Below are positions 9,024-54,105 of a DNA stretch of 64,000 nt, piece after piece. The position numbers were made by a program, and so were the translations under genes. Source of the DNA: Christiangramia sp. OXR-203 (GTDB lineage Bacteria; Bacteroidota; Bacteroidia; Flavobacteriales; Flavobacteriaceae); contig NZ_CP139698.1 in NCBI RefSeq assembly GCF_034372165.1, positions 2,294,001 to 2,358,000 of the forward strand, read 5' to 3'. The notes below the pieces were generated by a model, which saw only the letters and a list, made by a program, of their open reading frames with translations, did no database searches and was not told where the DNA came from. Within the stretch, counting starts at the first letter, position 1, and each line of letters starts with the position of its first letter.

Positions 9024-10271
9024 TCAGCCCCTCCGGGGGGTACCCCCCGGAGGGGCTGTGCTCAAATCGAGCGGCATGCGGCCCTCAAATTTAATAAAAA
9101 ATTGTTGGGCGGTCGTTGCCCAGTTCTGTAATGGCGATGTCCACTTCTTCTGAATGTTCATGGTCGCCAGATAGATCAGCTTCATAAGGGCCATGTCGCT
9201 GGTGAACGCGCCCTTGGTCTTGGTCACCTTCCGCACCTGCCTGTGGAACCCCTCTACGGCGTTGGTGGTGTATATAATCTTCCTGATGGGGGCGGAATAT
9301 GCGAAGTAGCTCGATAGGTTCTCCCAGTTGTCGTTCCAGCTCTGGATGACCACCGGGTACTTCTTGCCCCATTTTTCCTCCAGGTCCAGCAGTTCGTCCT
9401 CGGCCTCCTCCTTGCCGTTGGCCCTGTATACCAGTTTCAGGTCGCGCATGAACTCCTTTTGGTCCTTGGAGGCTACGTACTTGAGCGAGTTGCGTATCTG
9501 GTGCACGATGCACAGTTGGACATCGGTCTTTGGAAAGATGCTCAGGATGGCATCGGTGAACCCTTTCAGGTTGTCCGTACAGGCTATCAGTATGTCCTGG
9601 AGCCCACGGTTGTTCAGGTCGGTGAGCACTTGCAGCCAGAAATTGGCCCCCTCGCTTTCCGAGATGTACATGCCCAGCACGTCCTTATGGCCGTTTTTGT
9701 CGATTCCCAGTATGTTGTAGATCGCTTTGTGGCGGACCTTGCCGTCCTCCTTGACCTTGTAGTGCATGGCGTCCAGCCAGACGATACAGTACATCACGTC
9801 CAATGGCCTTCGCTGCCATGCCTTGATATCGGGTATGATCCGATCGGTGATATCGGTCAGCACGCTGTGCGAGATCTCGGTATCGTACATTTCCTTGATA
9901 TGGGCGCAGATGTCCCGATAGCCCATCCCCAGACCGTAGAGGCCGATTATCTTGTCGGCCAGGTTGTCCGCCAAAATGGTCTGTCGCTTTTTTACGATCT
10001 CGGGCTCGAAGCTGCTTTGGCGGTCCTGGGGCGTTTTGATCTCGAAAGTACCCACACCGGTCTTCAGGGTCTTTTTGCCCTTGCCGTTGCGCTTGTTGCC
10101 CTTGAGACGCTCATCATCGTCAAGATGAGCCTCCATCTCGGCCTCTAGGGCCTTGTCAAGGAAATTTTGGAGCAGCGGTGCAAAAGCGCCGTCCTTGCCG
10201 AAAAGGCTTTTCCCAGTCGTAAATTGTTCAAGTGCTTTTTTTTCAATGTTGTTCAGTTCTTCCTGTGTCAT
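9024..10271 (-). CDS. IS256-family (Mutator-type) transposase
   Basis: 415 residues, full length for the family. The DDE catalytic core is recognisable: WLDAMHYKV, then CTDNLKGFTD, then a TTNAVEGFHRQ segment supplying the Glu. An N-terminal helical domain precedes it. The last ten residues (APPGGTPRRG) are encoded by a perfect 34-base palindrome at 9025-9058. Codon use is GC-rich, unlike the host genes, indicating recent arrival from another genome. Moves the element by cut-and-paste or circle formation. Confidence 0.93.
   Translation of the reverse strand: MTQEELNNIEKKALEQFTTGKSLFGKDGAFAPLLQNFLDKALEAEMEAHLDDDERLKGNKRNGKGKKTLKTGVGTFEIKTPQDRQSSFEPEIVKKRQTILADNLADKIIGLYGLGMGYRDICAHIKEMYDTEISHSVLTDITDRIIPDIKAWQRRPLDVMYCIVWLDAMHYKVKEDGKVRHKAIYNILGIDKNGHKDVLGMYISESEGANFWLQVLTDLNNRGLQDILIACTDNLKGFTDAILSIFPKTDVQLCIVHQIRNSLKYVASKDQKEFMRDLKLVYRANGKEEAEDELLDLEEKWGKKYPVVIQSWNDNWENLSSYFAYSAPIRKIIYTTNAVEGFHRQVRKVTKTKGAFTSDMALMKLIYLATMNIQKKWTSPLQNWATTAQQFFIKFEGRMPLDLSTAPPGGTPRRG
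9025..9058. terminator. perfect 34-base GC-rich palindrome at the 3' end of the IS256 transposase
   Basis: Symmetric about 9041/9042 with no mismatch. Likely a transcription terminator or barrier that isolates the transposase from outside transcription; it overlaps the transposase stop codon. Confidence 0.5.
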
Positions 10272-10829: not shown

Positions 10830-10963
10830 TGCCAACATCGGTTCACCGCAAATAACGGGTTTAATCGAAAAAAGTGTAATTTTAGAAACCAGGAAAGAAA
10901 AAAGTTAAGCCGACAAGTCCGCATCCCTACTCCCGCAACTTGCGGTAACCGTAACCGTTATAT
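10830..10963 (+). repeat. attC site 9 (subtype B)
   Basis: R'' TGCCAAC, R' GTTATAT. L'' CGGTTCACCGC / L' GCGGTAACCG, again a compensated pair. Confidence 0.9.
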
Positions 10964-11365
10964 GCTATTGCTCCGCACATTTTTAGCTACAATGAACAAT
11001 AATTCTTCTAATCCGACAAATATGTGCATGTAAGCCTTCATCCGAAAAATCCGAAGTAAGAACTTTTAGTAAATCATTAACTTACATGATTCAGATCCGA
11101 AATGAGTTTTTACATTTATCGTTCAACTAAAATTTTATGCATAAGAACACCGACTTTCAATTGAATATTTACGCTAAAGAAGTTTCAGTTTAAACGGGAG
11201 AAATATAATGCGCGGCAAACTGGAGTTTCTCACGGTTCGGTAAAACTACGACGGACGCTCACTCTTGCGCAATGATTTCAGATAAGAAAATGATTAGAGA
11301 TCTAAACTTTTAATGTTCCCGACAGCGGCAAATCTCTCGTTCTTACTCAGACGTATCGCAACAGC
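10958..11365 (+). other. non-coding gene cassette, copy 1
   Basis: About 408 bases with no credible ORF. Ends are GTTATATGCTATTGC and GCAACAGCATATAAC, mirror images apart from position 11, so it is a genuine mobile cassette. Identical to the cassette at 34122-34529, and similar to the one at 22691-23099. Short complementary segments are present (GCACAT near 10977 with ATGTGC near 11026; CATGTAAG near 11028 with CTTACATG near 11083), suggesting a folded RNA or DNA element. Function unknown. Confidence 0.8.
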
Positions 11366-11498
11366 ATATAACAACGAATATTCGCAATTGTGGCCATTTG
11401 AAATAAAATAGTATTTTTAGAAACCAAGAAACAAAAACCTAAGCCGACAAATCCGAATACGTACAACCACAACTGACGATTATTCGAAACCGTTGGCA
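11366..11498 (+). repeat. attC site 10 (subtype D)
   Basis: R'' ATATAAC, R' GTTGGCA. Arms CGAATATTCGCAATTG and CAACTGACGATTATTCG. Confidence 0.85.
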
Positions 11499-11528
11499 AC
11501 AAGCTTGACATAAATTAAATAAAGAAGA

Positions 11529-22563: not shown

Positions 22564-22696
22564 TGCCAACAACGGTTAATCGCCAATAAGCGGCACCGTT
22601 AGAAAGAAAATAATTAACTTGACCAACGAACCAATACTAAGCCGACAACTCCGCGTCCCGCACTCCGCCAACTGGCGATAACCGAGACCGTTATAT
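22564..22696 (+). repeat. attC site 20 (subtype A)
   Basis: R'' TGCCAAC, R' GTTATAT. L arms CGGTTAATCGCC / GGCGATAACCG. Confidence 0.9.
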
Positions 22697-23099
22697 GCTA
22701 TTGCTCCGCACAATTTTAGCTACTAAGAACAATAATTCTTCTAATCTGACAAGTACGTGCATGTAAGCCTTCATCTGACAAATCCGAAGTAAGAACTTCT
22801 AGTAAATCGATAACTTACAAAATTCAGATCCTAAATGAGGTTTTACATTTATCGTTCAATAGAAATTTCATGGGAAAGAACGCTGACATTTAATTGAATA
22901 TTTACGCTAAAGAAGTTTCAATTGAAACTGGAAAAAAATTAAAGTGCGGCAAACTGGAGTTTCCAACGGATCGCTAAAACAACGACGGACGCTCACTCTT
23001 GCGCAATGATTTCAGTTAAGAAGATGATTAGAGATTTAAAATTTGGATGTTCCCGACAGCGGCAAATCTCCCGTTCTTACTCGGACGTATCGCAACAGC
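22691..23099 (+). other. non-coding gene cassette, copy 2 (diverged)
   Basis: About 409 bases. Same cassette ends as copies 1 and 3. Scattered substitutions relative to those, but the segment from GACGGACGCTCACTCTTGCG to the end is strongly kept. The only ATG-led short frame of copies 1 and 3 (near 10993) loses its start here, arguing against a peptide. GAGATTT near 23030 can pair with AAATCTC near 23064. Confidence 0.8.
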
Positions 23100-23232
23100 A
23101 TATAACAACGAATATTCGCAATTGTGGCCATTTGAAATAAAATAGTATTTTTAGAATCCAACTAACAAAAACCTAAGCCGACAAATCCGAATACGTACAA
23201 CCACAACTGACGATTATTCGAAACCGTTGGCA
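23100..23232 (+). repeat. attC site 21 (subtype D)
   Basis: R'' ATATAAC, R' GTTGGCA. Nearly the same sequence as sites 10 and 35, which also follow copies of the non-coding cassette. Confidence 0.85.
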
Positions 23233-30628: not shown

Positions 30629-31864
30629 CTAATTGTTCTTAGCTTGGTAATATTTATTTAAAAATTTAATCACCGAATATCCTATTTCCTCTCCCAAATT
30701 TACAGGAACGGCATTACCAATTTGTTTATATTGTTGAGCAGTGGAACCAACAAATTTCCAGTCATCAGGAAATGTTTGAATTCTAGCATATTCTCTAACT
30801 GTAAATGGTCTAGTTTCATCAGGATGACATCTTTCAGTTTGTTTTTGGGCAGGACTACAAGTCAAAGTCAAACTAGGTTCATCCCAACCAATTCTTCTGG
30901 CCATACCCGTTTTACCTCCACCGAGATAAAAACTTCCTCCCATATATTCCTTTTGTAAATCCAAAGGTAAATCTCGCCAATAACCTTTCGGTGGAACTAA
31001 ATCAAGAACCTTTTTCTTATATTCAGGATACTTTGCACCATCAGAATTAGGAACATCTTTATCAAACAAGTCTCCTTTTTTTAAGGCATCTTTTAAATTA
31101 TAAACTTTATTATGCTTTTTTGGATATTCATAGGCAATATCAATATCCTTTCTTACTCCAACTAAAATTAATCTTTCTCGCTTTTGAGGAACTCTGTAAT
31201 TAATAGCTTTTAAAACTTCAACTGGAACAACTTTATAACCTATTTCATCCAAAATTGAAATCATGCCTTTCAAAGTCTTTCCTTTATCATGGCTTAAAAG
31301 CCCTCGAACATTTTCTCCGATGCATATAGAAGGTTGCACTTCCTTAACTACCCTAGCAAATTCATAAAACAAAGTACCTCGAGCATCTTCTAAACCTAAT
31401 TTTTTCCCAGCATAACTAAAAGCTTGACAAGGAAATCCACCAGTTACTATATCCGCTTTATTCTTGTATTCCCTAAAATCAAAAGATTTTATATCGCCTT
31501 CCAAAACATTCCAATTTGGTCGATTCGTTCTTAGAGTTTTGCAGGCCCATTTATCGATTTCATTTAAGGCAACACATTTTAAACCTGATTTTTCCATTCC
31601 GATAGCTAAACCACCTGCGCCAGCAAATAGTTCTAAAACTGTAAATTGATCCAAAGGTTCTACGTAATTGGAGATATTATCTTCAAAATTTTCATCAAAC
31701 AACTTTCCCATTAAATTTTCAATATCGTCTTTTCGATAAACACGATAGTTAGATACGGGTTCCCTAACAGCATTTAAAATACCTTCATTATCCCATCTTC
31801 GTAAAGTTTCTTTACTTTTACCAATAATCTCTGCTGTCTCTGAAAGTGATAAATAATTCTCCAT
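30629..31864 (-). CDS. DNA (cytosine-5) methyltransferase with N-terminal MerR-like HTH
   Basis: 411 residues from ATG 31864. Residues 1-55 form a MerR/excisionase-type helix-turn-helix (SLSETAEIIGKSKETLRRWDNEG). The C5-methyltransferase motifs follow: I LELFAGAGG (77-85), IV GGFPCQAFS with catalytic Cys146, VI ENVRGL (184-189), VIII QKRERL and IX/X GNAVP near the C-terminus. It methylates cytosine in the site cut by the adjacent nuclease; the HTH probably represses its own promoter. The only cassette gene read leftward. Confidence 0.92.
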   Translation of the reverse strand: MENYLSLSETAEIIGKSKETLRRWDNEGILNAVREPVSNYRVYRKDDIENLMGKLFDENFEDNISNYVEPLDQFTVLELFAGAGGLAIGMEKSGLKCVALNEIDKWACKTLRTNRPNWNVLEGDIKSFDFREYKNKADIVTGGFPCQAFSYAGKKLGLEDARGTLFYEFARVVKEVQPSICIGENVRGLLSHDKGKTLKGMISILDEIGYKVVPVEVLKAINYRVPQKRERLILVGVRKDIDIAYEYPKKHNKVYNLKDALKKGDLFDKDVPNSDGAKYPEYKKKVLDLVPPKGYWRDLPLDLQKEYMGGSFYLGGGKTGMARRIGWDEPSLTLTCSPAQKQTERCHPDETRPFTVREYARIQTFPDDWKFVGSTAQQYKQIGNAVPVNLGEEIGYSVIKFLNKYYQAKNN

Positions 31865-31865
31865 A

Positions 31866-31910
31866 ACCAAGTTAGTTAACCTTATACATTGGTTACAAAT
31901 TTAAATTAAA
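31866..31910 (-). promoter_or_regulatory. candidate methyltransferase promoter/operator
   Basis: Read leftward, the stretch contains TTTG, then 21 bases, then TAACTTGG close to the Bacteroidetes -7 box, and interlocked repeats GTAACC...GGTTAAC and GTTAACTAAC suited to binding by the methyltransferase's HTH domain. Confidence 0.35.
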
Positions 31911-33994: not shown

Positions 33995-34127
33995 GCACAA
34001 CATCGGTTCATCGCAAATAACGGGTTTAATCGAAAAAGTATAATTTTAGAAACCAGGAAAGAAAATAGTTAATCCGACAAGTCCGCGTCCCTACTCCCGC
34101 AACTTGCGATAACCGTAACCGTTATAT
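33995..34127 (+). repeat. attC site 34 (subtype B)
   Basis: R'' GCACAAC, R' GTTATAT. L arms CGGTTCATCGCAA / TTGCGATAACCG. Confidence 0.9.
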
Positions 34128-34529
34128 GCTATTGCTCCGCACATTTTTAGCTACAATGAACAATAATTCTTCTAATCCGACAAATATGTGCATGTAAGCC
34201 TTCATCCGAAAAATCCGAAGTAAGAACTTTTAGTAAATCATTAACTTACATGATTCAGATCCGAAATGAGTTTTTACATTTATCGTTCAACTAAAATTTT
34301 ATGCATAAGAACACCGACTTTCAATTGAATATTTACGCTAAAGAAGTTTCAGTTTAAACGGGAGAAATATAATGCGCGGCAAACTGGAGTTTCTCACGGT
34401 TCGGTAAAACTACGACGGACGCTCACTCTTGCGCAATGATTTCAGATAAGAAAATGATTAGAGATCTAAACTTTTAATGTTCCCGACAGCGGCAAATCTC
34501 TCGTTCTTACTCAGACGTATCGCAACAGC
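34122..34529 (+). other. non-coding gene cassette, copy 3
   Basis: By eye identical to copy 1 (10958-11365), and the identity continues through the following attC to its R' box, about 535 bases in all. This indicates a recent duplication or re-insertion of the same circular cassette 23 kb away. No ORF. Ends GTTATATGCTATTGC and GCAACAGCATATAAC. Confidence 0.85.
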
Positions 34530-34662
34530 ATATAACAACGAATATTCGCAATTGTGGCCATTTGAAATAAAATAGTATTTTTAGAAACCAAGAAACAAAA
34601 ACCTAAGCCGACAAATCCGAATACGTACAACCACAACTGACGATTATTCGAAACCGTTGTAG
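34530..34662 (+). repeat. attC site 35 (subtype D)
   Basis: R'' ATATAAC, R' GTTGTAG. Same arms as site 10. Confidence 0.85.
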
Positions 34663-39690: not shown

Positions 39691-40695
39691 CTAAGCTAAT
39701 TTCGACATATAATTTTCCTGGTAATAGGTTCCTGATTTAGCGATTGCAAATGCTTGCTTTAGTAGTTTATTACATACTGCTATCAATGCTAGCTTCTTGC
39801 TTTTCCCCTTCTCTACTATACGCTCATAGAGTTTCCTGCATGCCCTATTGGTTCTACAGGCAGTGAAGCTACACATGAATAGTAAGTTCCGAAGTTTTCG
39901 ATTTCCTACTTTACTGATTCTACTTCTTCCTCTTACACTGGTCCCGGACTGTCTGATTGTTGGCGTTAGCCCACTATAACAACAAAGTTGCCTCGCATTC
40001 TCAAAACTGGTGAATCCATCGGTAAGTACAATCAATAGCATCGCGGTCTTCTTCCCCATACCAGGAATGCTGGTTAACTGCTCCAGCTGATCTTTCTGTG
40101 TTTCTTTTACCAATGACTCCAGCTTGGTTTCAATCTGGGTTAGTTCTTTCTCTAATTGCTTCAGCATTCGATTTAAAGAACGACTGACTGTTTTCGAAGG
40201 TATTCCTAATGCTTTCTCTCCATGTATTTTATTCTTGACGGCAGTACGCTGTTTCAGGTAAAGATCCTGAAGACTCAAGAGTTGCAAACATTCGGCCTGT
40301 ACTGCATTTCTTGCTGTGTACAAAGGAACCTCAGTAGCCTGGGCATACTCACAGATTGCTTTGGCATCACTCTTATCAGTCTTGACTTTAGAGAGCTTCA
40401 TTTGAATAAAACGCTTTACTGAAAGTGGGTTTACAACCGACACCGTGATACCTTTCTCATAGAGATACTGAGCTAACCTGTAATGGTAGTAACCCGTTGC
40501 TTCCATTACTATCAGGCTATCTTTTTGAATAGCTTTAAGGAAGCTTTTAAAGCCTTTTAGATCATTGGAGAACTGATTGTGCTTTCCACCTTGATCAACT
40601 ACATCAAAGAAAGATTTACTAATGTCTACTCCGTAAAAATGTTTAATTTTATCCATAATAGATTGATTGGAAAGAACAGCTACTTTAGTTTTCAT
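39691..40695 (-). CDS. IS110-family transposase (DEDD recombinase)
   Basis: 334 residues. N-terminal RuvC-like DEDD domain: YGVDISKSFFDV, VMEATGYYHY, VKTDKSDAKAI supply the acidic residues. The C-terminal Tnp20 domain (SIPGMGKKTA, then SGLTPTIRQSGTSVRG with the conserved Ser) completes the IS110 recombinase. It works with a structured guide (bridge) RNA from the element's non-coding end, here lying just upstream at 40697-40820. Confidence 0.95.
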   Translation of the reverse strand: MKTKVAVLSNQSIMDKIKHFYGVDISKSFFDVVDQGGKHNQFSNDLKGFKSFLKAIQKDSLIVMEATGYYHYRLAQYLYEKGITVSVVNPLSVKRFIQMKLSKVKTDKSDAKAICEYAQATEVPLYTARNAVQAECLQLLSLQDLYLKQRTAVKNKIHGEKALGIPSKTVSRSLNRMLKQLEKELTQIETKLESLVKETQKDQLEQLTSIPGMGKKTAMLLIVLTDGFTSFENARQLCCYSGLTPTIRQSGTSVRGRSRISKVGNRKLRNLLFMCSFTACRTNRACRKLYERIVEKGKSKKLALIAVCNKLLKQAFAIAKSGTYYQENYMSKLA

Positions 40696-41010: not shown

Positions 41011-42282
41011 ATGAAGTCAAGAATTTTACCTATCCTACTTATAATATTTTCTTTGTGTTTACAGACATTTGGTTATACACAAACAAATTCGAACCACGTA
41101 AAAGTTAAAGGCTATTATCGCAGTGATGGAACGTATGTAAAACCTCATTATAAAACAGCTCCGAATTCGACAAACAGGGATAATTTTACAACCAGAGGTA
41201 ATACTAATCCGTACACTGGTGAACCAGGTTATATAATTCCTGATTCTAGTCCGAATACATCTACTAATTCAACTAATAGCTCATATTCATCTAATTCATC
41301 ATATCAAATATATAACTATACCAGTACTTCGAACTGGTCTAGCAGCTACTATGAAGAAAAACCGATATATACTACCACTAATAATGCAAACTTGATGGAG
41401 CGTAAAAGCACATCGTCTGCAATTCAAGTAGTTATCCCTGCTAATTCAAATGTAAAAGTGATCAATTCTTTTTTTGGTGACTGGTGGGAAGTATCTTATA
41501 ATGGAAAGACTGGTTATTTAAACAGCAATTTATTATCCTTTAATTCTGACTCAAATACAACTAATAATCACAATTCAGGTTGGTCAAATAGCTTTTACGA
41601 TGATAAGCCAACTTATACTACCACTAGAAATGCATATCTGAGAGAGCACAAAAGCACGTCGTCTGCAATTCAAGTAGTTATTCCTGCCAATTCAAATGTA
41701 AAAGTCATCAATTCTTTTTTTGGTGACTGGTGGGAAGTATCTTATAATGGAAAGACTGGTTATTTAAATAGCAATTTATTATCCTTTAATTCTGACCCAA
41801 GTACAACAAATAATCGCAATTCAAGTTGGTCGAATAGCTTTTACGATGATAAGCCAACTTATACTACCACTGGAAATGCAAATTTGAGAGAGCACAAAAG
41901 CACATCGTCTGCAATTCAAGTAGTTATTCCTGCTAATTCAAATGTAAAAGTAATCAATTCTTTTTTTGGTGACTGGTGGGAAGTATCTTATAATGGAAAG
42001 ACTGGTTATTTAAATAGCAATTTATTATCCTTTAATTCTGACCGAAGTACAACAAATAATCACAATTCAAGTTGGTCAAACAGCTTTTACGATGATAAGC
42101 CAACTTATACTACCACTAGAAATGCAAATCTGAGAGAGCACAAAAGCACATCGTCTGCAATTCAAGTAGTTATTCCTGCCAATTCAAATGTAAAAGTAAT
42201 TAATTCTTTTTTTGGTGATTGGTGGGAAGTGTATTATAAAGGAAAAACAGGATATATACCTAGCTCTTTATTAACTAAATAA
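41011..42282 (+). CDS. exported protein with four tandem SH3b repeats
   Basis: 423 residues, signal peptide ending YTQ. A Ser/Thr/Asn-rich linker (to about residue 105) is followed by four near-identical bacterial SH3 (SH3b) domains with an 82-residue period (246-bp repeats starting at 41335, 41581, 41827, 42073), each with LREHKSTSSAIQVVIP and GDWWEVSYNGKTGYL. Such domains bind cell-wall peptides or surface ligands. The repeats differ by only a few bases, so the expansion is recent and likely variable in number. Sole gene of its cassette. Confidence 0.88.
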   Translation: MKSRILPILLIIFSLCLQTFGYTQTNSNHVKVKGYYRSDGTYVKPHYKTAPNSTNRDNFTTRGNTNPYTGEPGYIIPDSSPNTSTNSTNSSYSSNSSYQIYNYTSTSNWSSSYYEEKPIYTTTNNANLMERKSTSSAIQVVIPANSNVKVINSFFGDWWEVSYNGKTGYLNSNLLSFNSDSNTTNNHNSGWSNSFYDDKPTYTTTRNAYLREHKSTSSAIQVVIPANSNVKVINSFFGDWWEVSYNGKTGYLNSNLLSFNSDPSTTNNRNSSWSNSFYDDKPTYTTTGNANLREHKSTSSAIQVVIPANSNVKVINSFFGDWWEVSYNGKTGYLNSNLLSFNSDRSTTNNHNSSWSNSFYDDKPTYTTTRNANLREHKSTSSAIQVVIPANSNVKVINSFFGDWWEVYYKGKTGYIPSSLLTK

Positions 42283-42286
42283 CTGC

Positions 42287-42419
42287 AAGTAACAACGGTT
42301 AATCGCCAATAAGCGGCAGCGTTAGAAAGAAAACAATTAACTTGATCAACAAACCAATACCAAGCCGACAACTCCGCGTCCCTTTCTCCGCCAACTGGCG
42401 ATAACCGAGACCGTTGGGC
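42287..42419 (+). repeat. attC site 41 (subtype A)
   Basis: R'' AAGTAAC, R' GTTGGGC. L arms CGGTTAATCGCC / GGCGATAACCG. Confidence 0.9.
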
Positions 42420-43400: not shown

Positions 43401-43563
43401 AATTAACTACGCCCAACATCGGTTAATCGCAAATAACGGGTTCTGTCAAAAAAGTGTAATTTTAGAAACCAAGAAATAATGGTTAAGCCGACAAGTCCGC
43501 GTCCCTACTCCCGCAACTTGCGATAGGTACTGTGTTATAAAACAAGTATTTTTGATTAAAATT

Positions 43564-44640
43564 TTAGGAAGAAGTCAATGCTAAATTGCTTCTATCCTGT
43601 GCAGCAAGGACTTCGGTTCTTGCTGTCTTTTTTTGTTCATATTTTGGGTCGTAATCTTTTTCATTCTTCCATATGCTGTACATTAGTATTAATAATTTTC
43701 GCTCCACTGCCACCAGAGCAATCATAGGTTTAGCCTTAGTAGGTTTCACGCGCTCATAAAACTTCTTCAATGTCGGATTACATCGGACAGCGGTCATTGC
43801 CGGCATATAAAGTGCCCTACGTATATTTTTATTTCCTTTCTTACTGATCCTGGTCTTGCCCTTATAAGCACCTGATTCTTTCAGCACTACATCAAAACCA
43901 GCATAACTGGTAAGTTGTTTGGCATTGTTAAAACCAGTGAAGCCTAAGGTTTCACCCACTACCGTAGCTGCCGATACAAAGGAGATTCCTGGAATACTTT
44001 CCAGGTGTTTAATTCTACGCTTTAGATCACTGGTTTCACTGATCAATACCTTCATCTCTTTCTCAATCTCCTCCAATTGTTTAGCGATCAATTTTAAGCG
44101 CTGTTGATACCTCTTTAGCTCTCTTTTGTTTGTATAGGCAGCATGTTCAGTCGCATGAAGCCTGTTCTGCTCTATTTGTTTCTCCTTTAGAAGAAAGGAG
44201 CGTTCACGACTCAAACCTTTCAATTCTCTCAAAACAGGATTTGGAGGTGTCCAGAGTGGTAATGCTCGTTCACATCCAAGCATAGCCAGCATGCGACTAT
44301 CTAAAGCGTCGGTCTTCGATCTTTGATCCAAACTCTGGGCATAACGCTTAACACGACCAGATTGCATCACGCTCACCTTAAAACCAGCTTCATAGAGGTA
44401 ATAAACAAAGGCTTCATGATAGATCCCAGTAGATTCCATAACTATCCAGAGGTCCTCTCTAGAAACTACTTCTTTATCAAGCCAACGTATTAATTTTTTA
44501 AATCCGGGAAGATCATTACCTACTTCAAAGGAATCTTCAAACTCTTTTGCCAGGTCAACCGTTAGACGGCAAAGGCATACAGCCAAATTCTCTTTTGACA
44601 CATCTACTCCCAAGGTTACTTTTAAAATATGGCCCTCCAT
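43564..44640 (-). CDS. IS110-family transposase (second type)
   Basis: About 358 residues from ATG 44640 (MEGHILKVTLGVDVSKENL); an upstream in-frame start at 44673 is possible. DEDD motifs: GVDVSKENLAV, VMESTGIYHE, RSKTDALDSRML; Tnp20 part with SIPGISFVSA and SYAGFDVVLKESGAYKGKTRIS carrying the conserved Ser. Full length. Works with a bridge RNA probably encoded just upstream. Confidence 0.94.
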   Translation of the reverse strand: MEGHILKVTLGVDVSKENLAVCLCRLTVDLAKEFEDSFEVGNDLPGFKKLIRWLDKEVVSREDLWIVMESTGIYHEAFVYYLYEAGFKVSVMQSGRVKRYAQSLDQRSKTDALDSRMLAMLGCERALPLWTPPNPVLRELKGLSRERSFLLKEKQIEQNRLHATEHAAYTNKRELKRYQQRLKLIAKQLEEIEKEMKVLISETSDLKRRIKHLESIPGISFVSAATVVGETLGFTGFNNAKQLTSYAGFDVVLKESGAYKGKTRISKKGNKNIRRALYMPAMTAVRCNPTLKKFYERVKPTKAKPMIALVAVERKLLILMYSIWKNEKDYDPKYEQKKTARTEVLAAQDRSNLALTSS

Positions 44641-44695
44641 AATTGTTTGATTATAAACCTTATTCTCTATCACTTTTGCTCGTCTTTGATACGAT

Positions 44696-44815
44696 CTCTA
44701 CTAAAGGATCCAGGTACTGTTCAAGTTCTCAGAGAAAAATGTAAGGGTGGAATTTCTATCGCACGATATCATTATAGAAATGTATCAACCGTAACCTCCC
44801 TATCCCTTCCATTGG
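44696..44815 (-). ncRNA. candidate bridge RNA of the second attC-targeting IS110 element
   Basis: Outer stem AATGTAAGGG (44738-44747) / CCCTTCCATT (44804-44813) and inner hairpin ATTTCTAT/ATAGAAAT. It contains AACCGTAACC (44787-44796), identical to the target just right of the insertion, and TATCGCA (44757-44763), complement of the TGCGATA left of it. GGTACTGT at 44713-44720 repeats the element's own left terminus (43526-43533). Confidence 0.68.
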
Positions 44816-44904
44816 TTTAATTATTAATTCCTATTTTTAGCTAAATTACCTCGAGAAATCTAACATACGAACCGTAACCGTTAGCTCCAATAAATTTTTA
44901 GAGA

Positions 44905-45735
44905 ATGTGGAGAATATATGAAGAAAAACTACATCAAGTTTTAGTTGAAAATTATCCTGAAAGCAGAATAGAATTTGACGATCAAATTTTTGGAATATAC
45001 AGCAAAACTGAAAGACAAATTGATATTGCTCTCAGAGGAAATATAGCAGGAAATAAAGTTTTAGGCATTATTGATTGTAAATACTTCAGTAAAAAAATTG
45101 ATCTTAAAGTTGTGGAAAGCTTTATCGAAATGATGCAAGATGTAAATGCAAATTTTGGAATAATGATTACTAATAAAGGTTATTCTAAAGCGGCTAAAAA
45201 AAGAGTTAAGAATTCTAATCTAAAATTAGATATTTTGAACTTTAATGATATCGGAGAATTAACTTTAACTGTAGATTATTTTTTTAATAAGAATATTCTT
45301 GGACTTCAATTATCAAAATCAGAATTTCTAAAACGGAATAAACAAAATTCTGGTTATTTCGATCAAGATAAGTCGAACTATAAAAAACGTCTCATTGTTT
45401 TTAAGGAAGGATTTGCTAACAGAGAATACTTTGCTTTTAAGAAATTACTTGAGAGTGTTGTAAGAGCATTTAGAGATTTTCCACAAATGGAAAAGGTTCG
45501 AATTATAATTCCGGCTAAAAGAAATGAAGAAACTAAATTCTTATACAAGTGTGAAGTTTCAAAAACTGAAATTGAAAATTTTCTAGGTTTAGAAATTGAT
45601 CATTTAAGAGAGGATATTTCGAATTGGAGATCAGATTTTTTGAAAGATTTGGATAAAAGTAAAATTCTCAAATTCTCGGAAATTTACATTTCAAAAGAAG
45701 AATATGTTGAGTACTCAAAAATTAACTGGAGCTAA
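44905..45735 (+). CDS. Mrr/PD-(D/E)XK-type restriction endonuclease-like protein
   Basis: 276 residues. The N-terminal half shows a PD-(D/E)XK nuclease core: RQIDIALRG (about residues 37-45, Asp40), then GIIDCKYFSKKIDLKVVESF (about 54-73, Asp-x-Lys), and a C-terminal sensor-like segment. Similar to Mrr-like enzymes that cut modified DNA. The C-terminal half is unrecognised. No methyltransferase in the cassette, consistent with a modification-dependent or effector nuclease. The last few codons run into the R'' box. Confidence 0.75.
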   Translation: MWRIYEEKLHQVLVENYPESRIEFDDQIFGIYSKTERQIDIALRGNIAGNKVLGIIDCKYFSKKIDLKVVESFIEMMQDVNANFGIMITNKGYSKAAKKRVKNSNLKLDILNFNDIGELTLTVDYFFNKNILGLQLSKSEFLKRNKQNSGYFDQDKSNYKKRLIVFKEGFANREYFAFKKLLESVVRAFRDFPQMEKVRIIIPAKRNEETKFLYKCEVSKTEIENFLGLEIDHLREDISNWRSDFLKDLDKSKILKFSEIYISKEEYVEYSKINWS

Positions 45736-50854: not shown

Positions 50855-51859
50855 CTAAGCTAATTTCGACATATAATTTTCCTGGTAATAGGTTCCTGAT
50901 TTAGCGATTGCAAATGCTTGCTTTAGTAGTTTATTACATACTGCTATCAATGCTAGCTTCTTGCTTTTCCCCTTCTCTACTATACGCTCATAGAGTTTCC
51001 TGCATGCCCTATTGGTTCTACAGGCAGTGAAGCTACACATGAATAGTAAGTTCCGAAGTTTTCGATTTCCTACTTTACTGATTCTACTTCTTCCTCTTAC
51101 ACTGGTCCCGGACTGTCTGATTGTTGGCGTTAGCCCACTATAACAACAAAGTTGCCTCGCATTCTCAAAACTGGTGAATCCATCGGTAAGTACAATCAAT
51201 AGCATCGCGGTCTTCTTCCCCATACCAGGAATGCTGGTTAACTGCTCCAGCTGATCTTTCTGTGTTTCTTTTACCAATGACTCCAGCTTGGTTTCAATCT
51301 GGGTTAGTTCTTTCTCTAATTGCTTCAGCATTCGATTTAAAGAACGACTGACTGTTTTCGAAGGTATTCCTAATGCTTTCTCTCCATGTATTTTATTCTT
51401 GACGGCAGTACGCTGTTTCAGGTAAAGATCCTGAAGACTCAAGAGTTGCAAACATTCGGCCTGTACTGCATTTCTTGCTGTGTACAAAGGAACCTCAGTA
51501 GCCTGGGCATACTCACAGATTGCTTTGGCATCACTCTTATCAGTCTTGACTTTAGAGAGCTTCATTTGAATAAAACGCTTTACTGAAAGTGGGTTTACAA
51601 CCGACACCGTGATACCTTTCTCATAGAGATACTGAGCTAACCTGTAATGGTAGTAACCCGTTGCTTCCATTACTATCAGGCTATCTTTTTGAATAGCTTT
51701 AAGGAAGCTTTTAAAGCCTTTTAGATCATTGGAGAACTGATTGTGCTTTCCACCTTGATCAACTACATCAAAGAAAGATTTACTAATGTCTACTCCGTAA
51801 AAATGTTTAATTTTATCCATAATAGATTGATTGGAAAGAACAGCTACTTTAGTTTTCAT
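50855..51859 (-). CDS. IS110-family transposase, identical second copy
   Basis: 334 residues, identical to the protein at 39691-40695, with intact DEDD motifs and the Tnp20 Ser. Identity in both coding and non-coding parts shows very recent transposition within the array. Its guide region lies immediately upstream. Confidence 0.95.
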   Translation of the reverse strand: MKTKVAVLSNQSIMDKIKHFYGVDISKSFFDVVDQGGKHNQFSNDLKGFKSFLKAIQKDSLIVMEATGYYHYRLAQYLYEKGITVSVVNPLSVKRFIQMKLSKVKTDKSDAKAICEYAQATEVPLYTARNAVQAECLQLLSLQDLYLKQRTAVKNKIHGEKALGIPSKTVSRSLNRMLKQLEKELTQIETKLESLVKETQKDQLEQLTSIPGMGKKTAMLLIVLTDGFTSFENARQLCCYSGLTPTIRQSGTSVRGRSRISKVGNRKLRNLLFMCSFTACRTNRACRKLYERIVEKGKSKKLALIAVCNKLLKQAFAIAKSGTYYQENYMSKLA

Positions 51860-52800: not shown

Positions 52801-52817
52801 CATACGCATCACAACAA

Positions 52818-53970
52818 ATAGCTAAGGTAAAACCCAAGTACTTTCAAGCTAATTTCGACATATAAGTTTCCTGGAAATAGGTTCCTGATTAAGCGATTGC
52901 ATATGCCTGTCTAAGCAATTTATTACATACGGCAAGAAGTGCTAGCTTCTTATTCTTCCCCTTCTCTACTATACTCTCATAGAGCTCCTTGCAAGCTTGG
53001 TTCTACAAGTAGTGCTGCTACACGTAAATAATAAATTTCGAAGTTTCCGATTCCCCACTTACTGAATTTATTTCTTCCTGTTACACTAGTTCCAGATTGT
53101 CTGATCGTTGCCGTTCGCCAACTCTAAAGACAAAGCTGCCTGGTATTCTCAAAACTGGTAAATCCATCGGTAAGTACAATCAACAGTATCGCGGTCTTCT
53201 TTACCATTCCAGGTATGGTATACTAGTCAACTGTTCCAATTGATGATTCTGTGTTTCTTCCACTAGAGATTCCAGTTTGGTTTCAATCTGGGTTAACTCC
53301 TTCTCTAATTGTAGCATTCGGTTCAGAGAGCTACTGACGGTTTTCGAAGTGGGTCCCTAGGTTTTCTCCTCATATGTTTTATTCTTGACGGCAATATACT
53401 GTTACAGGTAAAGATTCTGAAGACTCAAGAGTTGCAAACTTTGCGCCCTTACGGCATTTCTAGCTGTATACAATGGTACTTCGTTCGCCTGAGCATACTC
53501 ACAGATCGCTTTAGCATCGCTCTTATCAGTCTTAACCTTGGAAAGCTTCATTAAAATAAAAGGCATTACTGAAAGTGGATTCATAACCGATACTTTTATT
53601 CCATTCTCATAGAGGTGCTGAGCCAGCCGGTAATGCTAGTAACCGGTAGTCATAAAAAACCTTTTAAACCATTTTTAACTGATCATGGTTGCCATTCTGA
53701 TCAACTACATCAAAGAAAGATTTGCTAATATCTACTCCGTAAAAATGTTTCATTTTATACATAACAGATTTTTGGAAAGAACAGCTACTTTGGTTTTCGT
53801 TGACTTTAAAACAAGAGCCAGGTTTCATAGAACTCGGGCGTTATTAAAGTTATAAAGAGAGAGGACTATCATTATTAACTGAAACCCAAATTCTAACGGT
53901 TTCTATATTTAATTACTTTCTTTGGTTCTATCCAATTTAACTATCAAAATTTAGAAAAATTAAACTTAAG
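52818..53970 (-). mobile_element. decayed IS110-family element related to the 1201-bp copies
   Basis: Aligns throughout with the 1201-bp element but with many substitutions, small deletions and frame breaks (for example near 53000, 53340 and 53640). It occupies the same attC position. The transposase is not expressible; one short intact stretch remains at 53402-53584. The region matching the guide hairpin has also drifted. Confidence 0.85.
52850..53764 (-). pseudogene. IS110-family transposase remnant
   Basis: Contains recognisable pieces of the DEDD domain (KVKTDKSDAKAICEYAQ in the 53402-53584 frame) and of the N-terminus near 53760, separated by frameshifts and stops. Non-functional. Confidence 0.8.
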
Positions 53971-54105
53971 ACGGTTAATCGCCAATGATTGGTAGCGTAA
54001 GTAGAAAATTGTATTTTAGAATTCAATCATAAAAGCAATTAAACCGACAAACCGCGTTCTTACTGGAGCAACTTGCAATAGCCCCGATCGTTGGCAACAA
54101 GCTAA

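What the first reader, a model, noticed from the sequence alone, without database searches (positions are those of the whole stretch)
43526..44870. A second, unrelated IS110-family element targets the other arm of attC with its own guide
Inserted exactly between GCGATA and ACCGTAACC of a B-type attC. Its upstream region contains AACCGTAACC and the complement of TGCGATA, matching both target halves, plus GGTACTGT, the element's terminus. Two independent elements have thus converged on attC, which gives dozens of safe, repeated sites. The guide matches B-type sites (CCGTAACC), not A-type (CCGAGACC), predicting subtype preference.
Basis: partly seen in the sequence, partly recalled or inferred. 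Interest (0 to 1): 0.9.

Follow-up and report, generated by a model that had tools for sequence, protein, structure and literature searches.

The report
RNA-guided jumping gene targeting integron cassettes
A small mobile element carries its own guide RNA that appears to steer it into the recombination sites of a gene-capturing array (an integron); such targeting is known from a related group, but here it is found in a different branch, and some of its relatives carry two target guides in one RNA.

Summary
Confirmed. Its upstream non-coding region is predicted to form a bridge RNA (target loop plus donor loop; both-sided changes in 13 of 29 pairs). The target loop matches the site at 14 of 15 non-core positions; the exact 16-nt footprint occurs 10 times in the 3.4-Mb genome, all in this array. 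Across 25 elements (X and 24 relatives) guides fit their own sites better than in any of 20,000 permutations. Relatives in 7 named Flavobacteriaceae genera also sit in attC; an 88%-identical sister carries an A-type guide but lies in a TonB-receptor-like gene, so attC is programmed, not obligatory. The window's other element has its own guide for the opposite arm; the two are distant homologues (34%), not unrelated. Guide-directed attC insertion is already known for IS1111-group elements (ISKpn4, ISPst6); this is an IS110-group counterpart. Nine relatives carry two target loops in one RNA, which the papers I could search did not describe. Subtype preference is predicted by the guide but weakly tested; refractoriness of A-type sites is untested.

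The parts
43527..44869 (-). IS110-group insertion sequence X (body between the two core dinucleotides), 1343 bp
   Evidence: boundaries from the split attC and from ends shared with relatives
43564..44640 (-). transposase/recombinase gene from the likely ATG (358 aa); the ORF listing gives 369 aa from a GTG at 44673, which overlaps the donor loop
   Evidence: PF01548 E 2.2e-23, PF02371 E 9.5e-26; NF033542 RNA-guided IS110 transposase 209 bits, cut-off 140; ATG position
44671..44869 (-). 5' non-coding region encoding the predicted bridge RNA
   Evidence: consensus fold with compensatory changes
44738..44813 (-). target-binding loop of the bridge RNA
   Evidence: covariance model R1, 74.2 bits, E 3.5e-18 (X was one of its 13 rows); only match in the window up to E 0.5
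44787..44796 (-). left target guide GGTTACGG plus core TT
   Evidence: identical to the left half of the target, 10 of 10
44756..44764 (-). right target guide GTGCGATAG
   Evidence: complementary to the right half of the target, 6 of 7 non-core bases
44671..44728 (-). donor-binding loop
   Evidence: helices 4-6 of the consensus fold, 100% of cells paired
44712..44720 (-). left donor guide ACAGTACCT, identical to the element's right end plus core CT
   Evidence: sequence
44679..44683 (-). right donor guide ACGAG, complementary to core CT plus CGT of the left end
   Evidence: sequence; short, inferred
43525..43526 (.). core at the left junction (AG; CT in element orientation, donor-like)
   Evidence: CT at this junction in the other 24 elements too
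44870..44871 (.). core at the right junction (AA; TT in element orientation, target-derived)
   Evidence: TT also in L014, L153, L155; CT in the others
43405..43526 (+). left part of the interrupted attC
   Evidence: cassette start GGGCGT equals the complement of the 6 nt before AAC
44870..44887 (+). rest of the interrupted attC (B-type R' arm); the next cassette starts AGCTCC
   Evidence: the attC of that next cassette begins GGAGCT-AAC at about 45728
39691..40695 (-). transposase of the other IS110 element, copy 1 (opposite attC arm)
50855..51859 (-). the same element, copy 2
52813..54000 (-). the same element, decayed copy 3 (approximate ends)
   Evidence: match with 3 stops inside

Best explanation
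X is an intact IS110-group insertion sequence whose bridge RNA, encoded upstream of the recombinase gene, programmes it for the R'/L' arm of B-type attC sites. The target loop pairs its left guide with one strand of GGTTACGG and its right guide with the other strand of ATCGCA, while the donor loop pairs with the joined ends of the element; the DEDD recombinase exchanges strands at a 2-nt core (donor CT, target TT). The insertion splits the attC hairpin, which should lock the cassette in place. Shown here: anatomy, guide-target match, agreement between guide and site across relatives, and array-only occurrence of the exact footprint. Inferred: transcription, recombination, circular intermediate and locking of the cassette.
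For: Domain hits; ISCro4 9t56 (5e-40) and IS621 8wt6 (1.5e-37) as the two PDB matches. Consensus RNA fold of X and 11 relatives: two stem/internal-loop modules, 98.0% of cells paired and 13 of 29 pairs with changes on both sides, 0 of 500 shuffles as high for either. Guide versus own site: 267 of 375 positions over 25 elements, permuted mean 201.5, maximum 238, 0 of 20,000; 16 single-loop elements 188 of 240 (maximum 167); 8 distinct guides 94 of 120 (maximum 89). Before two guides were corrected by hand and three elements added: 222 of 330 over 22, maximum 211, 0 of 20,000. X footprint: 10 exact sites in the genome, all in the array. attC partner arm seen for 16 of 25 elements, X included.
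Against: The single-sequence fold of X is not better than shuffles (z +1.1, 173 of 200 at least as good), and one of the five structure measures, further pair types, is not above shuffles (380 of 500). Permutations ignore shared ancestry, and the guide register of X, L046, L058, L153, L155 and L137 was set by hand with the target in view. Restricted to the 4 distinct guides at attC, 228 of 5000 permutations do as well. Sister L014 sits in a TonB-receptor-like ORF with 10 of 15 matches and a guide register shifted by 1 nt. Some relatives fit poorly (L055 and L056 9 of 15, L060 7, L007 5, whose left flank is odd). No expression or transposition data.
Confidence: 0.92

Rival explanations
1. The recombinase recognises the folded attC hairpin or its DNA by protein contacts, and the matching strings in the non-coding region are incidental or captured target sequence.
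For: Most relatives in Flavobacteriaceae sit in attC sites, in the same arm and orientation.
Against: Relatives in Adhaeribacter (two copies), Pontibacter and Rufibacter (plasmid) sit at sites in which I see no attC partner arm, with left guides changed accordingly (7-8 of 8) and right guides 5 of 7, but only 2-3 of 7 for Rufibacter. The matches lie in the two sides of a conserved internal loop, left guide first, as described for IS621.
Confidence: 0.05
2. Survivorship: the element inserts widely but only insertions in non-coding attC sites persist.
For: Sister L014 is in a gene; attC insertion is probably mild (inference).
Against: The exact footprint exists nowhere else in the genome, so the guide alone explains the location.
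Confidence: 0.03

Closest known systems
IS1111-attC group (ISKpn4, ISPst6, ISPa21), IS1111 family
   Same: DEDD transposase, guide RNA from a non-coding region (shown for ISKpn4), insertion into one end of attC sites (PMC11187229: introduction and passages; PMC11616780: passages, abstract in part)
   Different: IS1111 has its non-coding region downstream of tnp, subterminal inverted repeats usually of 11-13 bp and the opposite guide order; X has it upstream, and no inverted repeat of 9 nt or more with up to one mismatch in its terminal 60 nt
IS621 and other IS110-group elements with bridge RNA (PMC11208160, passages)
   Same: upstream non-coding region, target and donor loops, left guide and right guide, CT core, sequence homology of the recombinase
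   Different: target is attC; target core TT in X; nine relatives have two target loops, whereas the passages describe two internal loops in all, one for target and one for donor
The other IS110 element of this window (39691-40695 and copies)
   Same: same two Pfam domains, upstream guide region, attC target
   Different: 34% identity, opposite attC arm, guide ATGAACCGT / CAACAA

Membership tests
IS110 family, IS110 group | DEDD N-terminal domain plus Transposase_20 C-terminal domain | tested here: met
   D24, E80, D122, D125 and S267 invariant in the 4 rows of A1 (which residues are catalytic is recalled)
IS110 family, IS110 group | long non-coding region upstream of tnp | tested here: met
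   229 nt upstream of the ATG, 37 nt downstream of the stop
IS110 family, IS110 group | bridge RNA with target and donor loops | tested here: met
   in silico only
IS110 family, IS110 group | circular intermediate and RNA-guided transposition | not testable with these tools
   needs an experiment
IS1111-attC group | subterminal inverted repeats | tested here: not met
   none of 9 nt or more with up to 1 mismatch within 60 nt of the ends
IS1111-attC group | non-coding region downstream of tnp | tested here: not met
   it is upstream
IS1111-attC group | insertion into attC | tested here: met
integron (host array) | attC-bounded cassettes with the R''/R' closure rule | tested here: met
   202 of 230 positions over 46 cassettes
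integron (host array) | IntI integrase | tested here: inconclusive
   a 385-aa tyrosine recombinase precedes the array: NF040815 228 bits (cut-off 220), TIGR02249 193 (cut-off 265), matched in two stretches

The most novel reading that the evidence does not exclude
IS110 elements have diversified within attC sites by reprogramming, and one lineage (Maribacter, Zobellia, Kriegella and kin) carries bridge RNAs with two target-binding loops on one donor loop, so that one element can insert into two attC subtypes: a natural multi-target bridge RNA.
Probability: 0.5. Interest if true: 0.8.

Novelty: new variant of a known kind. Interest (0 to 1): 0.62.

Why it matters
It extends RNA-guided attC targeting to the IS110 group and to integrons of Bacteroidota, gives natural pairs of guide and site that differ by attC subtype, and shows two element lineages using opposite arms and different subtypes of the same kind of site. 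The two-loop relatives, if functional, would show that one bridge recombinase can use two target programmes, which bears on how such elements change targets and on genome-engineering use.

Tried and rejected
The single-sequence folds of X and of a two-loop RNA are no better than shuffles. A complementarity test for attC arms separated poorly and was replaced by a partner-arm motif chosen after seeing the flanks; that motif also hit in L042, L050, L058 and L137, which I judged not to be partner arms. My first anchoring misread left guides of L043, L044, L060 and L046, L058 and the right ends of L153, L155, L137; one search is the corrected table. X was anchored by hand, because its loop is one base shorter than that of most relatives; L014, with the same short loop, is scored in the other register. 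Two trees lost many rows to my open-frame filters and have weak or open forks, so no claim on the number of gains of attC targeting or of double loops rests on them. Left out before the 25-element count: L009 (abnormal right end), L048, L057, L059 (cut by contig ends), L026/L034/L038 (decayed fragments), and loci that I took for duplicates of the same elements (L006, L010-L013, L121-L123, L138, L140, L151, L152, L154).

Full report
What is there. The window lies at 2294001-2358000 of a 3,395,452-base, one-contig genome and holds part of a long cassette array. The repeated sites are true attC sites: in 46 cassettes (of 53 intervals between 54 right arms; the rest had no left arm by my pattern) the bases after GTT equal the complement of the bases before AAC of the same cassette's attC at 202 of 230 positions (shuffled mean 88, maximum 116). 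A 385-aa tyrosine recombinase stands at genome position 2279303-2280460, just before the array. My pattern (up to 4 substitutions) found 51 arms over 93.5 kb, three of which (GCGGCACC) are probably not R' arms; types CCGAGACC 17, CCGTAACC 11, CCGGGACC 8, CCGAAACC 6, others fewer. CCGTAACC arms go with left arms AACATCGG in 10 of 11 cases, CCGAGACC with AACAACGG in 15 of 17.

The element. X occupies 43527-44869. Its gene has both IS110 domains, passes the NCBIfam model for RNA-guided IS110 transposases and matches the solved bridge recombinases ISCro4 and IS621. It is the only copy in the genome; the other three matches are the second element. It splits the attC between GCGATA and ACCGTAACC. 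The cassette before it obeys the closure rule, and the cassette after it starts AGCTCC and ends in an attC beginning GGAGCT-AAC.

The guide. An alignment of the non-coding region of X and 11 relatives with one target loop folds into two modules, each a stem, an internal loop and a hairpin. 98.0% of cells pair and 13 of 29 pairs have changes on both sides; 0 of 500 shuffles reach either, and sliding the structure destroys it, but the number of further pair types is not above shuffles (380 of 500), and the structure comes from the same alignment. Folded alone, X is not more stable than shuffles. The first module carries the target guides on the two sides of its internal loop, the second the donor guides. 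In element orientation the site is GGTTACGG[TT]ATCGCAAG and the guides read GGTTACGG[TT] and the complement of [CT]ATCGCAC: 14 of 15 non-core positions. The 16-nt footprint GGTTACGGTTATCGCA has 10 exact matches in the genome, all in the array at 2283031-2328120; of two single-mismatch matches one is in the array and one in a small second cluster near 1.68 Mb. At up to 3 mismatches it has 13 forward and 53 reverse matches, the reversed-pattern control 11 and 10.

Relatives. Searches of 299 and 397 family genomes (overlapping samples) found the clade in 9 and 10 genomes, own included; 24 genus genomes gave one close relative (88%, L014) plus decayed pieces in G319; the named-genome scan, capped at 80 loci, gave 20 loci of 55-64% identity (L041-L060). 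For 25 elements (X and 24 relatives) the guides fit their own sites at 267 of 375 positions (permuted mean 201.5, maximum 238, 0 of 20,000); for 16 single-loop elements 188 of 240 (mean 130, maximum 167); for 8 distinct single-loop guides 94 of 120 (mean 58, maximum 89, 0 of 20,000); for 11 at attC only 131 of 165 (2 of 20,000); for the 4 distinct guides at attC 50 of 60, reached by 228 of 5000, so discrimination between attC subtypes alone is weakly tested. Six elements were anchored by hand with the target in view; an earlier run with 22 elements, in which L046 and L058 were still misread, gave 222 of 330 (mean 179, maximum 211, 0 of 20,000). Examples: GGTTACGG (X), GGTCTCGG (Oceanihabitans, Winogradskyella, Flagellimonas, Hyunsoonleella), GGTCTTGG (G693, two copies), GTGCTGGG (Pontibacter), GAACTAGG at GAACCAGG (Adhaeribacter). 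It was not seen for L042, L060, L043 and L049 (the last two with only 258 and 53 nt of flank), nor, as I judge, for L014, L046, L058, L050 and L137. In G693 the pattern GGTCTYGGTTAACGCA has 44 sites within one mismatch, in three clusters, 13 of them of the TCTTGG subtype; both copies sit at that subtype. At up to 3 mismatches G693 has 28 and 45 matches against 27 and 21 for the reversed control.

The sister in a gene. L014 in G309 is inserted in a frame with a TonB plug domain (E 2.8e-15 on its left side) that continues on the other side. Its left guide is of A-type, GGTCTCGG, and the site reads GGTCTCG[TT]AAC: 7 of 8 and 3 of 7 with the guide shifted by one base. G309 shows no cluster of this guide's footprint: 8 and 9 matches at up to 3 mismatches against 27 and 26 for the control, the best with 2 mismatches, and one B-type footprint (the assembly is about 90% complete). 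So closely related elements carry guides for different attC subtypes, and attC is not obligatory.

The other element. Its copies at 39691, 50855 and 52813 sit in the opposite arm..GGCGAT(G/T)AACCGT / TTGTT... Its non-coding region holds ATGAACCGT and CAACAA: copy 2 matches its own left half over 9 nt but its right half not over CAACAA, copy 1 over 6 and 6, and in decayed copy 3 the region has changed (6 and 5). The 14-nt footprint ATGAACCGTTGTTG is exact at 5 places, all in the array, and of 24 single-mismatch places 23 are in the array. In the genus, 16 of 17 further copies with an intact left end sit at the equivalent site; L023 reads GAACCATG (the search listed at most 30 loci). Its guide spells AACAACGG, the left arm of A-type sites, whereas X spells the right arm of B-type sites: a division of attC by arm and by subtype.

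Two target loops. A covariance model of the target loop, built only from 13 single-loop elements, was run over 58 sources. It finds one strong loop (E 3.1e-15 or better) in the window and in the 26 other clade loci given (13 of the 27 are rows of the model), none in the decayed L026, weaker ones in 11 of 30 outgroup loci, two reverse-strand matches at E 0.3 (L153, L155), and a second loop 5' of the first in 9 loci (L041, L042, L043, L044, L047, L049, L054, L060, L007; E 2.6e-11 to 2.1e-4). With nearly the same RNA, the sites of L041 and L042 fit the 5' loop (9 and 10 of 15 against 5 and 5), L007 too on its right half (5 against 2 of the first 5), while L043 and L054 fit the 3' loop (10 against 8; right half 4 against 2 of 5); the other four are undecided (margins 1-2). 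This suggests, but does not prove, that both loops are used.

Known work. IS1111-group elements ISKpn4 and ISPst6 target one end of attC sites; a non-coding RNA co-purifies with the ISKpn4 transposase (PMC11187229: introduction and passages). ISPa21 in attC is suggested to immobilise cassettes (PMC11616780: passages, abstract in part). Bridge RNAs with one target and one donor loop are described in PMC11208160 (passages). The original reports of the IS1111-attC group were seen only as references. In the listings of searches (some cut: 20 of 22, 10 of 219, 18 of 19, 25 of 32 papers shown) no title or opening of an abstract names IS110-group elements in Bacteroidota attC sites or two target loops; most subscription journals and all preprints are missing, so this is not proof of absence.

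Verdict. A real, well-supported finding; a new variant of a known kind.

Noticed in passing
L042 1736-1925 and eight further loci (L041, L043, L044, L047, L049, L054, L060, L007): Two target-binding loops in one predicted bridge RNA, separated by a strong hairpin; found with a model built from single-loop elements only.
   Followed up: partly
genome 2279303-2280460 (L149 804-1961), 13.5 kb left of the window: The tyrosine recombinase heading the array misses the NCBI cut-off for integron integrases and matches that model in two stretches with a gap, as if the IntI-specific insert were absent or different.
   Followed up: partly
genome 1681183-1686877 (L156): A small second cluster of about five attC-like sites on the other strand; no integrase was looked for.
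   Followed up: partly
window about 10870-11500, 22600-23230, 34030-34660: Similar blocks recur three times about 11.5 kb apart (300-nt parts 93-100% and 76-98% identical); cassettes starting ATATGC.
   Followed up: no
window 41328-42365: Four copies of a tandem repeat with a 246-bp period inside a 423-aa ORF with bacterial SH3 domains.
   Followed up: no
window 9024-10271: Mutator-type (IS256-like) transposase on the minus strand inside the array.
   Followed up: no
window 30629-31870 and 44905-45735: A C-5 cytosine methylase on the minus strand and an Mrr-like restriction endonuclease, the latter in the cassette right after X.
   Followed up: no
L007, left flank of the element: The left flank ends in AACACAGTACCT, like the element's own right end, as if a copy had recombined with or inserted next to another.
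   Followed up: no
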